A model generated the notes under the pieces. The model did no database searches and was not told the origin of the DNA. It was given only the letters and a program-made list of their open reading frames with translations. The position numbers and the translations under genes were made by a program. Below are positions 36,421 to 41,730 of a stretch of DNA of 64,000 bases, one piece after another (position 1 is the first letter of the stretch; each line of letters starts with the position of its first letter). The stretch comes from Terriglobus albidus (GTDB taxonomy: Bacteria; Acidobacteriota; Terriglobia; Terriglobales; Acidobacteriaceae), in contig NZ_CP042806.1 in the NCBI RefSeq assembly GCF_008000815.1, positions 5,580,001 to 5,644,000 of the forward strand. The letters are read 5' to 3'.

Positions 36421-37711
36421 GGGACGGCTTCACAGTTTGCGGAAAAACGCGTCTTTTCGCCTGCGGGTCAGTCTGTTGTGAGGGATCGGTGAGTTGTTTT
36501 GGTTCTCTATGGCACGTTGTTATGCGGTTTGGGTGGGTTTAGAGGGTGTTTAGACACACTACGGCCGTGTCATGACTGTGCTGGGATGGGAGGTATCAGC
36601 TTCACCAGCCGCAGGAGATTATGGGCTGCGGCCATGAGCTGTACCATCCAGTCCACCTTGCGTAGCCCACGCAGCTTGGTCTGTCGCATCGAACGGTCCA
36701 GCTTCATCCAACCGAAGACCTTCTCAACCAGTTTGCGTTTCCTCTGACTGATCGCATATCCCGGCTCGCTGCGTTCCTTGCTGTTGAGCCAGTTGGGCCA
36801 TTTGGGGTTCGGCTCATACTCGGCCACGTGCGGCCTGACCTTGCGACGGCGCAGGGCCTTGATGAACTTCTCGTACTGATAGCCCTTGTCGGCTCCCAGC
36901 GTGATCCGCTTTTTACGCTTGATCCGCTTCAACATCTTCAGAGCCGCTGCACGTTCCTCTGTCGTCCCGGCCTGTGTGGCCATGGCCGCCACCACCAGAC
37001 CGTTGCGGTTCTCGGTGATCACATGGCCCAGATAGCTGGGAACCGATGCTCCGCTGGAGCTCTTGCGATACAGCCGCGCTTCCGGATCGGTAGAGGACTC
37101 ATGAGTATCACGCAGTAGCTTCTTACCACCCGCTCCCGTCCCACGGTCCGGAGGATCGGCCTTCTCATGGAAGCTGCGCCGGTTGGCCCATGCCTGGATC
37201 AGCGTGCCGTCCACCGTGAAGTGTTCTTCGCTGAGCAGCTTGTGCTGGCTAGCTTCCTCCAGCACCGCCAGCAGAAGCTTCTGGCTGGCTTCGCCGGCGA
37301 TCAGACGCTCCCGGTTCTTGGTAAATACCGTCACGTCCCACACCGGATCGTCAATCTCCATGCCCACGAACCAGCGGAACAACAGGTTATAGTTCAGCTG
37401 CTCCATCAACTGCCGTTCCGAGCGAATCGAGTACAGCACCATCAGCAACTGCGCACGCAGCAGACGTTCCGGCGCGATCGATGGTCGCCCTGTCGCCGCG
37501 TAAAGCTGCGACAACTCACCATCCATCCGCTTCAGTGCCGCATCCACCATAGTCCGGATCCTCCGCACCGGATGATCCGATGCGATCCGCTGCTCCATCG
37601 TTACGTAACTGAACATCCCGCTCTGCTTCGCTTCTTCTCCCCGCATACCTCTCTCTTACGACAATCCCCGAAAAACGAAAAGAGTTTTTCCGCAAACTGT
37701 AAAGCCGTCCC
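36421..37711 (-). mobile_element. IS5-family insertion sequence
   Basis: 1291 bp bounded by 28-bp terminal inverted repeats with one mismatch, beginning GGGACGGCTT (36421-36448 and 37684-37711). It encodes one transposase. No clear target duplication is visible. Both flanks are pieces of the palindromic repeat family (GCACCGCAAGTGCGAA...CTTAAG on the left, the GCGGCTTTAGCCGC hairpin on the right), so it sits inside a repeat cluster. Confidence 0.88.
36570..37646 (-). CDS. IS5-family transposase
   Basis: 358 residues, apparently intact. An N-terminal DUF772-like helical domain (GRPSIAPERLLRAQLLMVLYSIRSERQLMEQL...LLFRWFVG) precedes the DDE core: Asp146 in HFTVDGTLI, Asp253 in LGADKGYQ, Glu309 in KLVEKVFGWMK. 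The basic linker region is complete, so the element may still be active. An alternative start at residue 11 (MFSYVTMEQ) fits many relatives and is plausible. Confidence 0.93.
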   Translation of the reverse strand: MRGEEAKQSGMFSYVTMEQRIASDHPVRRIRTMVDAALKRMDGELSQLYAATGRPSIAPERLLRAQLLMVLYSIRSERQLMEQLNYNLLFRWFVGMEIDDPVWDVTVFTKNRERLIAGEASQKLLLAVLEEASQHKLLSEEHFTVDGTLIQAWANRRSFHEKADPPDRGTGAGGKKLLRDTHESSTDPEARLYRKSSSGASVPSYLGHVITENRNGLVVAAMATQAGTTEERAAALKMLKRIKRKKRITLGADKGYQYEKFIKALRRRKVRPHVAEYEPNPKWPNWLNSKERSEPGYAISQRKRKLVEKVFGWMKLDRSMRQTKLRGLRKVDWMVQLMAAAHNLLRLVKLIPPIPAQS

Positions 37712-37865: not shown

Positions 37866-38008
37866 CAAGAACGCGCTGAAGGCCGCGTTCGCTGGGTGGG
37901 GAGCAAAGTTCACGTACCGGCGTGTAGTGAACGCACATGGGATGAGTTCGGTATTGATCGTGCTGCTCGTTGCTGCCACGTTTGGCATCAACTGATAAGG
38001 TTGATGCC

Positions 38009-38878
38009 ATGGAAGTGCACCTGATCGATGGGACCTATGAGCTCTTTAGGCATTTTTATGCTCTCCCCTCGGCCAAAGACAGCGAAGGTCGCGAGGTTGC
38101 CGCTGTGCGCGGTGTTCTCGGTTCACTTCTGGGCATGATGCGCGCAGGTACGACGTACATCGGTGTGGCTACCGACCATGTGATTGAGTCCTTCCGGAAT
38201 CAGATGTGGCCTGAATATAAGACCGGAGAGGGTGTGGACCCCCAGTTACTATCGCAGTTTCCGTTGTTGGAGGAGGCGCTCCGTGCGCTCGGAGTCGCAG
38301 TGTGGGCGATGGAGGAATATGAGGCAGACGATGCGCTGGCATCGGCGGCTTCTCTCGCACAGGACGATCTTCGGGTTGAGCGCGTGATCATCAGCACCCC
38401 GGACAAGGATCTTGCTCAGTGCGTTGTCGGCACACGCGTTGTGCAACTCGACCGGCGCAGGCGCCTCGAACGCGATGAACAGGGAGTTATCCAGAAGTTC
38501 GGAGTCAAACCAGGCTCCATTCCGGATTATCTCGCCTTGGTCGGTGACGCGTCCGATGGCTATCCGGGACTGCCAGGGTGGGGCGCCAAGTCTGCTTCTG
38601 CCGTTCTCTCTCGCTTCGGCAAACTGGAAGCGATCCCGTCCGACCCACGGGATTGGCAGGTGAACGTTTCCAATCCGAAAGGCCTCTCCGAGGTTCTCAA
38701 TAGTAAACGGGATCTGGCATTTCTATTCCGGGACCTTGCTACCCTTCGAACGGATCTTCCGCTCTTCGCAACCGTTGACGATCTACTTTGGAAGGGTCCT
38801 ACGACCACCTTTCCTCCCATAGCAGATCGCTTGGACAAGGCAAGCTTTTCGAAAGAGCGCGTTCCACGTTCCTCTTGA
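38009..38878 (+). CDS. orphan 5'-3' exonuclease (FEN / PolA N-domain type)
   Basis: 289 residues from the ATG at 38009. It is a stand-alone flap-nuclease fold: HLIDGTYELFR (first metal Asp), VATDH, EYEADDALAS, STPDKDLAQCV, and the helix-3-turn-helix-like GDASDGYPGLPGWGAKSASAVL. All acidic positions of the two metal site are present. It would remove 5' flaps or RNA primers. It lies between the IS5 and IS110 elements. Stand-alone copies occur beside full PolA in many bacteria, so its role may be redundant or specialised. Confidence 0.9.
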   Translation: MEVHLIDGTYELFRHFYALPSAKDSEGREVAAVRGVLGSLLGMMRAGTTYIGVATDHVIESFRNQMWPEYKTGEGVDPQLLSQFPLLEEALRALGVAVWAMEEYEADDALASAASLAQDDLRVERVIISTPDKDLAQCVVGTRVVQLDRRRRLERDEQGVIQKFGVKPGSIPDYLALVGDASDGYPGLPGWGAKSASAVLSRFGKLEAIPSDPRDWQVNVSNPKGLSEVLNSKRDLAFLFRDLATLRTDLPLFATVDDLLWKGPTTTFPPIADRLDKASFSKERVPRSS

Positions 38879-38911
38879 GACGGGAAGATTCGGAATGGGA
38901 ACGTCCCGTCT
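38878..38911 (+). terminator. hairpin after exonuclease gene
   Basis: AGACGGGA (38878-38885) pairs with TCCCGTCT (38904-38911), starting at the last base of the stop codon and followed by GTTTGG. The T-run is poor, so a terminator role is only moderately likely. Confidence 0.4.
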
Positions 38912-38956
38912 GTTTGGATGTATAGGCGGTGAGGGGGCGTGGGCGGAAATGCAACA

Positions 38957-39032
38957 GGGTTCTCCTGGAGATTACGCTGCTGAGACTGGCTGTATCGAGC
39001 AGCCGGCTCAGAAATCCCAAACAGGAGAACCC
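38957..39032 (+). ncRNA. structured leader of IS110 transposase (possible bridge-type RNA region)
   Basis: A perfect 11-bp stem GGGTTCTCCTG (38957-38967) with CAGGAGAACCC (39022-39032) closes over an inner stem formed by CTGAGACTGGCTG and CAGCCGGCTCAG. The right arm contains the AGGAG ribosome-binding site and ends one base before the ATG. IS110-family elements are known to make bridge RNAs from their non-coding ends. Whether this segment is that RNA or a translation-blocking leader is inference. Confidence 0.5.
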
Positions 39033-39033
39033 C

Positions 39034-40116
39034 ATGGATGTCCTTCACTATATCGGATTAGATGTGCACAAGAGGAGCATCAGCTACTGCATCAAGACGG
39101 TAGCTGGGCAGATCGTGCAAGAAGGCAAGCTACAGGCAAGCCGGCAGGAGCTGCGACGTTGGGCAGAGGAACTCCAGAGATGGAGCGGAGCGATGGAAGC
39201 GACGCTGTTCAGTGCCTGGATCTACGATACGTTGAAGCCGTACGCGGAGCGGCTGGTGATGGGACATCCTGCGAAAATGCGAGCCGTCACTGCTGGCAAG
39301 AAGAAGAGCGATACGATCGATGCGCGAACGATCGCCGATCTGTTGCGATGCGATCTGTTACCGGAGTGCTATGTGATGCCGCCGCAGATGCGCGATCTGA
39401 GACGGCTGCTGCGTTATCGCAGCATGGTGGTCCAGCAATCGGTGCGGATGCAGAACAAGATGGCTGGGCTGCTGATGGAAAGCGGGACTGTCTTCCACAA
39501 GGAAAAGCTGCACGGCAAGAAATACTTCTCCGCTCTGATCGAGACACTGGAAGAAGTGCCGGAGTCAGTGAAGGATCTGCTGCGGATGAGCCGCAGTTCG
39601 ATGGAGCTGTTCCAGTCGGCACAGAAGCAGATCGCCCAGAGGCTGTTATCGGAGCCGGCCTTAGAGCAGCGGATCGAGCGTCTGATGAGCATCCCCGGAG
39701 TGGGTCCGATCACGGCGTTGACCTGGGCCTTGGAGGTTGGCGATCCGTATCGCTTCTCCTCCATCGGGGACGCGGTGAGTTACTGCGGTCTGACGGCTGC
39801 GTTCCGGTCCTCTGCCGGCAAGCAGCAACGAGGACCCATTTCCAAACAGCGCAATGCGTGGCTGCAGACGGTGCTGATCGAAGCAGCCAAACTGGCGCCA
39901 CGCTGGAACCCGCAACTGGCGGCGCTGCATGCCAAACAACTGGAGCTCGGACATCGCAATCGGGCCACGCTGCAACTAGCACGCAAGCTGGTGGCTTATC
40001 TGCTGGCGGTGGACAAGAGCGGCCAGCCCTTCCGGATCGTGACTTCGCCACCGGAAACAAAAGACGCCATGAAGACAAAAACGAAAAAGCAGCCTCTGCT
40101 CACTCAAGCTGCCTAA
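39034..40116 (+). CDS. IS110-family transposase (DEDD / serine recombinase)
   Basis: 360 residues from the ATG at 39034, preceded by ACAGGAG. An N-terminal RuvC-like DEDD domain (YIGLDVHKRS with Asp10, GAMEATLFS, KKSDTIDARTIADLL) is joined by coiled-coil to a C-terminal domain with a helix-hairpin-helix (LMSIPGVGPITALTW) and the catalytic Ser in RGPISKQRNAWLQ. Appears intact. The upstream open frame from 38929 is the leader hairpin and not coding. The ends of the element cannot be fixed, because IS110 elements lack long terminal repeats. Confidence 0.94.
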   Translation: MDVLHYIGLDVHKRSISYCIKTVAGQIVQEGKLQASRQELRRWAEELQRWSGAMEATLFSAWIYDTLKPYAERLVMGHPAKMRAVTAGKKKSDTIDARTIADLLRCDLLPECYVMPPQMRDLRRLLRYRSMVVQQSVRMQNKMAGLLMESGTVFHKEKLHGKKYFSALIETLEEVPESVKDLLRMSRSSMELFQSAQKQIAQRLLSEPALEQRIERLMSIPGVGPITALTWALEVGDPYRFSSIGDAVSYCGLTAAFRSSAGKQQRGPISKQRNAWLQTVLIEAAKLAPRWNPQLAALHAKQLELGHRNRATLQLARKLVAYLLAVDKSGQPFRIVTSPPETKDAMKTKTKKQPLLTQAA

Positions 40117-40420
40117 TACCAGTTCGACCTGTCAGCGATCCACCGGCCGGTCCTTGCTCGCTTGGGGACTGTGCAACGGAGCAGCAGCTCCGGATACACT
40201 TTACCGTCTGTTTCGAGGCCGGCCGGTCAACTCTCACTCAATCTTCGCCGACGCCGTTCCACCAATGGTGTTCCCGCAAATGGATGTCTGGCCACGCTGC
40301 CTATGCGTTGGTCTTATCTAAGGATCGAGAACAGTTCGACTTCACTCATAACCAAGCGCCGGGAGAATACCTTCCGCCTCGCCATGGGAAATCTCCGTTT
40401 TCCCTTGACTCTTACCTATC

Positions 40421-40642
40421 ATGGATGTCCCCAGGTTTCTCAATGATGATTTGTCCCTCGATCCTCAGTTGCAGCGCCTCGTTGAGGGCGCGTCCAGGAC
40501 ATGTCGCGTTTGCGCGCCCAGTCGGATCAAGCCGCCCGATCTCAGCGCTCAGATGCGTCCTGTAGGCTACACCGACCTATTCTTGTTGTTACTTCGCTAT
40601 CTGTGTGAGACCCTTCGTATGAAAGAAATGGGAGACTCGTGA
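40421..40642 (+). CDS. possible small protein coupled to the secreted unknown
   Basis: 73 codons, soluble, with no recognisable domain; two Cys (RTCRVCAPS). Its TGA overlaps the GTG start of the next gene by 4 bases (GTGA), the usual sign of translational coupling, but its own ribosome-binding site is weak. Positions 40117-40420, which include the right end of the IS110 element, hold a repeated CCGGCCGGTC word (near 40143 and 40214) and no gene I can support. Confidence 0.4.
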   Translation: MDVPRFLNDDLSLDPQLQRLVEGASRTCRVCAPSRIKPPDLSAQMRPVGYTDLFLLLLRYLCETLRMKEMGDS

Positions 40643-41730
40643 ACTATCGGCTTTCCACCAAGCTAGGGGTAGTATCGGTCGTCCTTGCGTCGCTTCTCGC
40701 AAGTGCCGCCGCGCCTGCCCAGGCGCCGGTCGCGCGAGTGACCGAAACCTCTCTGGAAGCGTTGCTGACTGCGGCTCACTGGTCCGAGCGCGCCGATGAT
40801 GACTTTCACGGAGAGCAACTGTCAACCTCGTCGGTCTCACTGTTAGCGACTGGCGCAGGGGCGAGCAGACCTACCTCCGATCAACTTGGCGGCCTTGGCG
40901 TGCTCGTGTTGGCCCTTTCGGTTGCGGAGTGGGGTGTCAAAGCAGACGACACGCAACAGGTCACGCAACAGGATCCCGCCAAGCATAGTTGGAGCGGCCC
41001 CAAAATGTTGGGGGGTAAGCACATCATGAGCTATACCGCGGGCGGCATCGGCATTCCCCATCTCGACGTCGGAGACGCGATGCCATTTTTCGACGAGCTT
41101 GCTCGCTTGCTACCCGCAGCAGGACCCGTAGCGACCGAATTACGCCATGCCGGACAGGACGGCTCTGTATTTCATTACGATGTGGTTCGGGCTCAGGGCG
41201 GAATTTGCTCAACCGCTAAGCCAAAGCCGACCAAGCTCATAGACTTGGACGGTGAGGCTTTCTCCGACGTAGCGGAGTCCTACGCAGGACCCAAATACTG
41301 TCAGAGATTTAACAGCTCTTCGCGCCTTGATCCCGAACGGTGGCAGCGTCTCCGGCATTGGAGTCGAGTCGGTCTGCGTCGTAGGGATATTCAGGCGTGG
41401 ATTGTTAGGGATTGGGTCGCCCACCGCTGGATGCCGGCCTATCTAGAAGTCTCCAGCCGTCCGGAAGGTACGCTCGCAGAAGCCTTCATTATCGCGCGTA
41501 TCCGAAATTCATCGCCCGCACTCGCGCAAGCGGCGCTGAAAGCAGCAGGGAGTGCGACTGATCCTACAAGGCGAATTATGGCCGAGCTCGCCAGGTACGC
41601 ACGGGGCAGCGAAACAAACCGATGTCGGGCAGGGGTTATGCAGCGACCTGCGGCGATGCTGGGACTCACTGTCGTGTCCACTGACAAGGACGGATGTCTC
41701 CCTAGGTCCATGGTCTCGGATCAACGCTGA
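40639..41730 (+). CDS. secreted protein of unknown function
   Basis: 363 residues, GTG start with GGGAG upstream. A Sec signal (YRLSTKLGVVSVVLASLLASAAAPAQA) precedes a mature part without TM. Motifs that stand out are YTAGGIGIPHLDVGDAMPFFDELARLL and RIRNSSPALAQAALKAAG. It does not match a family I know. Base use looks slightly different from the neighbouring genes and it lies directly behind an IS110 element, so acquired DNA is possible. Confidence 0.6.
   Translation: MNYRLSTKLGVVSVVLASLLASAAAPAQAPVARVTETSLEALLTAAHWSERADDDFHGEQLSTSSVSLLATGAGASRPTSDQLGGLGVLVLALSVAEWGVKADDTQQVTQQDPAKHSWSGPKMLGGKHIMSYTAGGIGIPHLDVGDAMPFFDELARLLPAAGPVATELRHAGQDGSVFHYDVVRAQGGICSTAKPKPTKLIDLDGEAFSDVAESYAGPKYCQRFNSSSRLDPERWQRLRHWSRVGLRRRDIQAWIVRDWVAHRWMPAYLEVSSRPEGTLAEAFIIARIRNSSPALAQAALKAAGSATDPTRRIMAELARYARGSETNRCRAGVMQRPAAMLGLTVVSTDKDGCLPRSMVSDQR

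What the first reader, a model, noticed from the sequence alone, without database searches (positions are those of the whole stretch)
38957..39034. IS110 transposase start buried in a long stem-loop; candidate bridge-RNA region
A perfect 11-bp stem closes on the AGGAG site and ends one base before the ATG, with a second inner stem. This would block translation unless the RNA is remodelled, giving self-limitation. IS110 elements are known to use structured bridge RNAs from their non-coding ends to choose targets, so the same segment could be part of such an RNA.
Basis: partly seen in the sequence, partly recalled or inferred. Interest (0 to 1): 0.6.

Follow-up and report, generated by a model that had tools for sequence, protein, structure and literature searches.

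The report
Conserved hairpin guarding transposase start codon
A jumping gene in a soil-type bacterium starts its transposase message with a long RNA hairpin that pairs up the ribosome landing site. Relatives keep the hairpin by matched mutations, so it is a real built-in feature and probably a brake, but the element's targeting guide RNA lies at its other end, not here.

Summary
The hairpin is real: an exact 11-bp stem (38957-38967/39022-39032) covers AGGAG and ends one base before the transposase ATG at 39034 (fold z -5.9). Three identical copies in the genome, and a repeated insertion site matching CCGTCT-GT-CCCCAGGTTTC, place the element at 38914-40428 (1515 bp), so the hairpin is inside it. 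Relatives sharing 46-71% of the transposase sequence keep a hairpin with this architecture in front of tnp. In one subgroup 15 of 25 pairs show compensatory change (0 of 500 shuffles reach this). One relative lacks it.

The bridge-RNA idea fails for this segment. The guide RNA is in the non-coding region after tnp (40138-40307). Its two target guides covary with the insertion-site flanks across relatives (p about 1e-5 and 4e-5), in the order and at the end described for IS1111-type seekRNAs. The leader has no above-chance match to target or donor.

Best reading: an IS1111-type element whose 5' leader limits transposase translation, as shown experimentally for ISPpu9. In the window the Shine-Dalgarno is fully paired. 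In a sister subgroup it lies in an internal loop, while an inner CUGAR/YUCAG bulged stem stays nearly fixed, hinting at a bound ligand. Function is inferred, not tested.

The parts
38906..38913 (+). left half of the target site (CCGTCT) plus core GT (38912-38913)
   Evidence: flank comparison of the 3 genomic copies and sites of the dispersed repeat
38914..38919 (+). LE end; TTGGAT (TTGAAT in most relatives) = candidate -10 box of the circle-junction promoter
   Evidence: TTGAC lies exactly 22 nt before the core in 8 of 8 elements, giving TTGACN-18-TTGAAT on the circle; consensus inference. The scan of the integrated region found no promoter
38922..38926 (+). left subterminal inverted repeat ATAGG (partner 40415-40419)
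   Evidence: varies together with the right copy among relatives, read
38957..39032 (+). leader hairpin: outer stem 38957-38967/39022-39032, internal loop, inner bulged stem 38980-39011
39023..39027 (+). Shine-Dalgarno AGGAG, paired in the outer stem
   Evidence: unpaired probability 0.01 versus 0.42 with shuffled upstream sequence
39034..40116 (+). tnp: IS110-family DEDD transposase, 360 aa
   Evidence: the leader of most relatives carries in-frame stops, which supports this start
40138..40307 (+). guide RNA (seekRNA/bridge RNA) candidate in the right non-coding end
   Evidence: alignment A8 and consensus fold with 23 pairs, 14 with compensatory change
40162..40169 (+). right target guide UUGGGGAC, pairs the top strand of GTCCCCA
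   Evidence: guide-flank permutation test, p about 4e-5
40204..40213 (+). [quoted passage not shown]
   Evidence: guide-flank permutation test, p about 1e-5
40280..40288 (+). conserved AUGGAUGUC matching the RE end: candidate left donor guide
   Evidence: same sequence at 40421-40429; conserved in A8
40405..40410 (+). TTGACT, candidate -35 box in the right end
   Evidence: TTGAC at -22 from the core in 8 of 8 elements
40415..40419 (+). right subterminal inverted repeat CCTAT
40427..40439 (+). core GT (40427-40428) and right half of the target CCCCAGGTTTC

Best explanation
The segment is the 5' untranslated leader of the transposase mRNA of an IS1111-type element (1515 bp, 38914-40428). As RNA it folds into a two-part hairpin whose outer stem pairs the Shine-Dalgarno and ends one base before the ATG. 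This keeps translation, and so transposition, low. On the excised circle, a -35 box in the right end and a -10-like box in the left end would form a promoter whose transcript starts near 38926. The hairpin (from 38957) would then be in that mRNA as well as in any read-through mRNA: a constant brake, not a filter against outside transcription. Target choice is made by a separate guide RNA encoded after tnp, which reads CCGTCT-GT-CCCCA of a dispersed genomic repeat. Shown by computation: structure, its covariation, its place in the element, and guide-target covariation. Inferred: the effect on translation, the promoter and transcript start, and any ligand that opens or clamps the hairpin.
For: Fold z -5.9. 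Three identical copies. Covariation. G-U exceeds A-C among imperfect pairs (31 versus 9 cells), as expected if the sense-strand RNA is the selected form; cells, not independent events. CM hits in 299 genomes of the class lie, wherever I inspected the flanks, behind the left end and before an IS110 start or its remnant. SD pairing in the window, L013, L032, L038, L089 and ISMno22, p 0.016 each, the floor of 60 shuffles. ISPpu9 precedent: weakening the leader structure raised a translational fusion 26-fold (PMC8450116). Guides in the right end.
Against: No expression data. In the sister subgroup (L037, L039, L041, L044) the SD sits in an internal loop and is no less accessible than with shuffled upstream sequence, so RBS burial is not the only conserved property. 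L034 (57% identity, tnp apparently frame-shifted) lacks the hairpin. Among other IS110 elements of the phylum only 3 of 20 show significant SD pairing. No significant pairing was found between leader and guide RNA, so no opening agent is known.
Confidence: 0.7

Rival explanations
1. The leader hairpin is a binding site for the element's own transposase (or a host RNA-binding protein): its stem-internal loop-stem shape resembles the guide RNA's target loop, so excess transposase or RNP clamps the hairpin and shuts off its own synthesis.
For: The inner stem CUGAR/YUCAG with a one-nt bulge is nearly invariant while the outer stem changes freely. The architecture stays even where the SD is not paired. 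The transposase family binds an RNA of similar architecture (PMC11187229, PMC11208160).
Against: No sequence motif shared between leader and guide RNA was identified; no binding data; the L038 and L089 inner stems differ from the motif.
Confidence: 0.2
2. The leader hairpin is itself part of the bridge/seek RNA that picks target or donor.
For: IS110-group elements encode the guide in the left end (PMC11208160, PMC11187229), and the hairpin has an internal loop like a guide loop.
Against: Longest leader matches to target or donor are at the shuffled expectation. The guides are in the right end and covary with the flanks. The order, top-strand match before bottom-strand match, is the IS1111 order.
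Confidence: 0.04
3. The inverted repeat acts as DNA (a cruciform or protein-binding palindrome at the left end) rather than as RNA.
For: It lies about 40 bp from the element end.
Against: G-U exceeds A-C among imperfect pairs (31 versus 9); the hairpin is tied to the start codon and holds the SD; the true ends carry separate short subterminal repeats.
Confidence: 0.05
4. Translational attenuation by a short upstream ORF that runs into the 5' arm.
For: Several leaders have an ATG in TTTGAATG and an open frame into the stem (read).
Against: The frame is not kept: L039, L047, L036, L053 and L072 shift or stop early (my reading of the sequences).
Confidence: 0.03

Closest known systems
ISPpu9 tnp leader of Pseudomonas putida (IS110 family; PMC8450116)
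   Same: IS110-family element in a dispersed repeat; tnp 5' UTR folds and buries the RBS; a non-coding RNA downstream of tnp on the same strand
   Different: ISPpu9 has a 244-nt 5' UTR and an antisense RNA (Asr9); no antisense promoter match was found here and expression is untested.
IS1111-type seekRNA elements (ISEc11, ISPa11, ISKpn4; PMC11187229)
   Same: DEDD transposase, longer non-coding region after tnp, subterminal inverted repeats, guide order top-match then bottom-match, repeat target as for ISPa11
   Different: short subterminal repeats (5 bp in the window); the structured leader is not mentioned in the passages of that paper that I searched
IS621 / IS110-group bridge RNA (PMC11208160, PMC11208158)
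   Same: guide loops with left and right target guides and a donor guide, dinucleotide core (GT here, CT there), circle-junction promoter
   Different: IS621 encodes the RNA in the left end before tnp; here it is in the right end with reversed guide order
IS10, IS50 and IS200 control of transposase translation
   Same: translation start of transposase limited by RNA structure or RNA (general knowledge; cited in PMC8450116)
   Different: In IS10 and IS50 the block acts on read-through transcripts (recalled, not tested); here the hairpin would be in every transcript

Membership tests
IS110 family (IS1111 plus IS110) | DEDD_Tnp_IS110 plus Transposase_20 domains | tested here: met
IS1111 group | longer non-coding region downstream of tnp | tested here: met
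   312 nt after tnp versus 120 nt before it, from ends set
IS1111 group | subterminal inverted repeats, 7-17 bp per PMC11208160 | tested here: inconclusive
   present and varying together, but 5-7 bp (window ATAGG/CCTAT, L047 TAAGTC/GACTTA)
IS1111 group | guide RNA after tnp with top-strand match 5' of bottom-strand match | tested here: met
   RTG 40162-40169 before LTG 40204-40213; covariation; order rule
IS1111 group | guide RNA co-purifies with transposase and directs transposition; circular intermediate | not testable with these tools
   needs experiment
   leader matches not above shuffles
RBS-burying transposase leader (ISPpu9 type) | 5' UTR structure pairs the SD of tnp | tested here: met
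   window SD unpaired probability 0.01 versus 0.42 shuffled; not met in subgroup 2
RBS-burying transposase leader (ISPpu9 type) | weakening the structure raises translation | not testable with these tools
   shown for ISPpu9 only
RBS-burying transposase leader (ISPpu9 type) | antisense RNA opens the leader | tested here: inconclusive
   no sigma-70-like promoter found on either strand, but promoter types of this phylum may not be covered
any Rfam family | match to a catalogued RNA family | tested here: not met
   no Rfam 15 match at E up to 1 in 38000-41500

The most novel reading that the evidence does not exclude
The leader is an uncatalogued, clade-wide structured RNA whose conserved bulged inner stem and internal loop form an operator for the transposase or its guide-RNA complex, so that an RNA-guided recombinase represses its own translation by binding a hairpin shaped like its guide RNA.
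Probability: 0.18. Interest if true: 0.65.

Novelty: new variant of a known kind. Interest (0 to 1): 0.42.

Why it matters
Bridge/seek-RNA elements are being developed as programmable recombinases, and how they hold their own recombinase in check is known experimentally, as far as I found, for one case, ISPpu9. A covarying leader RNA across a clade of IS1111-type elements, absent from Rfam, gives a ready test of translational self-limitation and of possible autoregulation by an RNA-guided recombinase. The element is also a new natural example of guide-target covariation: its guide matches a dispersed genomic repeat at a GT core.

Tried and rejected
Leader as guide RNA: matches to target and donor at shuffled expectation. 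Leader pairing with the guide RNA (an Ssr9-like interaction): duplex energies within shuffles. Upstream ORF attenuation: frame not conserved. Alternative tnp start at GTG 38929: leaders of most relatives have in-frame stops. Rfam: nothing. Sigma-70 promoters in the integrated element: none. First idea that the 13-nt repeat CCGTCTGTTTGGA/CCGTCTGTTTCGA was a donor guide: corrected, it is the left target plus core. First idea that GGAATGGGAACGTCCCGTCTGTTT was another IS's terminal repeat: dropped, it belongs to a dispersed repeat. Generality over all IS110: only partial. 5 of 17 distant annotated IS110/IS1111 genes have a stem at the start codon with p <= 0.02, against 3 of 48 control genes with p <= 0.05. 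Covariation on the window's subgroup alone (6 sequences) was not significant. A single alignment of both subgroups failed for the outer stem.

Full report
OBSERVATION. The sequence at 38957-39034 is as described. The outer stem is 11 of 11 Watson-Crick pairs, encloses AGGAG, and ends one base before ATG 39034. The inner stem has a single bulged A. The 91-nt stretch folds at -42.3 kcal/mol versus -24.2 +/- 3.1 for shuffles, z -5.9. The SD is unpaired with probability 0.01, versus 0.42 when the upstream sequence is shuffled.

GENE AND ELEMENT. The ORF 39034-40116 has both IS110-family domains and passes the NCBIfam IS110 model. The same genome (one 6.4-Mb contig) holds two further copies identical from 38906 to 40439. 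A related contig in genome contigs is labelled Terriglobia. A dispersed repeat close to CCGTCTGTCCCCAGGTTTC is present at 10 sites with up to 3 mismatches, none for the reversed control pattern. All three element copies are flanked by its two halves, so the insertion point is at GT. That gives element 38914-40428, 1515 bp, including one core copy. The hairpin is therefore inside the mobile unit. TTGAC lies exactly 22 nt before the core in all 8 elements with both ends. The short subterminal inverted repeats change together (ATAGG/CCTAT, ATAAGT/ACTTAT, TAAGTC/GACTTA).

THE GUIDE RNA IS AT THE OTHER END. The region after tnp is conserved across 13 aligned sequences (the window and 12 relatives), and a consensus fold of the first part has 23 pairs, 14 with compensatory change. 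On the two sides of its internal loop lie segments matching the two flanks of each element's own insertion site. For the left guide, 6.1 of 8 positions match on average against 3.5 for other elements' flanks (p about 1e-5; 4e-5 without two near-duplicates of the window's target). For the right guide it is 6.5 of 8 against 4.0 (p about 4e-5). Flanks and guides were read by hand, and the relatives are not fully independent. In the window: UUGGGGAC 40162-40169 and CCGUCUGUUU 40204-40213. A conserved AUGGAUGUC (40280-40288) repeats the RE end and is a candidate donor guide; a right donor guide was not identified. The order, top-strand match before bottom-strand match, and the place after tnp are those of IS1111-type seekRNAs (PMC11187229). 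The leader shows no above-chance match to target or donor.

THE LEADER IS A CONSERVED RNA. Relatives with 46-71% identical transposase have a hairpin with this architecture before tnp. Group 1 (window, L013, L048, L031, L042, L032) has the SD paired or largely paired in the outer stem. Group 2 (L036, L037, L039, L041, L044, L047 and more) has a split outer stem with GGAG in an internal loop. Further variants are L066/L075 (GGAGCCTCC/GGAGGCTCC) and the Desulfocapsa plasmid copy L089 (AAGAGACCTCCT/AGGAGGTCTCTT). The inner CUGAR/YUCAG stem with a one-nt bulge is shared by groups 1 and 2; L038 and L089 differ there. Covariance models found 29 and 8 hits in 299 genomes of the class. Those I inspected follow the left-end motif TTTGAATG (with variants) and precede an IS110 start or a remnant; some hits at contig ends cannot be judged. 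On the model-fitted alignment of 26 distinct leaders, 15 of 25 pairs have compensatory double changes versus 3.1 in shuffles and 1-7 in slid controls. That alignment leans towards the structure, and related sequences inflate shuffle tests. A separate arm-swap test agrees: mean own duplex -19.7, foreign -12.0 kcal/mol, p about 5e-6, and 5e-5 with 8 representatives. G-U outnumbers A-C 31 to 9 among imperfect pairs. The leader is not coding. No Rfam family matches.

LIMITS. L034 (57% identity) has a short left end with no hairpin; its tnp appears frame-shifted. In group 2 the SD is not more paired than with shuffled upstream sequence. Among other IS110 elements of the phylum 3 of 20 show significant SD pairing. 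Among 17 distant annotated IS110/IS1111 genes, 5 have a stem at the start codon with p <= 0.02, against 3 of 48 control genes with p <= 0.05. The feature is therefore clade-wide here and scattered elsewhere, including ISMno22 and a Mesorhizobium element with 9-10-bp stems ending at the start codon. It is not a rule of the whole family.

MECHANISM. Most likely the leader limits translation of transposase. The direct precedent is ISPpu9, where the tnp 5' UTR buries the RBS and weakening it raised a translational fusion 26-fold (PMC8450116). The predicted junction promoter would start transcription near 38926, upstream of the hairpin, so the brake would be present in circle-derived and read-through mRNA alike (inference). 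The fixed inner motif, kept where the SD is not paired, suggests an additional ligand, perhaps the transposase, which binds RNA of similar architecture. This is unproved.

VERDICT. The self-limitation idea is supported by conservation and precedent but untested. The bridge-RNA idea is wrong for this segment and right for the opposite end. Novelty: new variant of a known kind.

Noticed in passing
window 40391-40410: An inverted repeat GGGAAATCTCCGTTTTCCC sits directly before the TTGACT box; relatives keep a similar repeat at the same place. Possible guide-RNA 3' end or terminator.
   Followed up: no
own genome 5172308, 5173108, 5170960, 3220128 and others; L012, L017, L026: A small dispersed repeat containing CCGTCTGTCCCCAGGTTTC occurs at about 10 sites; it is the target of this element. 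Its own nature (REP-like or other) was not worked out.
   Followed up: partly
L018 (own genome 2278200-2279523): A different IS110-type transposase, one of a set of about a dozen similar copies, lies about 350 bp from a copy of the same kind of repeat; it may share the target.
   Followed up: no
L053 and L071: Elements with most of tnp deleted that keep the leader hairpin and the right-end guide RNA (L053 is 911 bp end to end): possible non-autonomous derivatives.
   Followed up: partly
window 36570-37646 (-): A 358-aa ORF that looks like another insertion-sequence transposase, close to the 5'-3' exonuclease-like gene (37970-38878). Judged by eye only.
   Followed up: no
L136 (IS4321), L149 (IS5075), L139, L140, L138, L145: Several distant IS110/IS1111 elements also have a stem ending 0-2 nt before the tnp start; IS4321 and IS5075 differ by G-U versus G-C at one pair of that stem.
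   Followed up: partly
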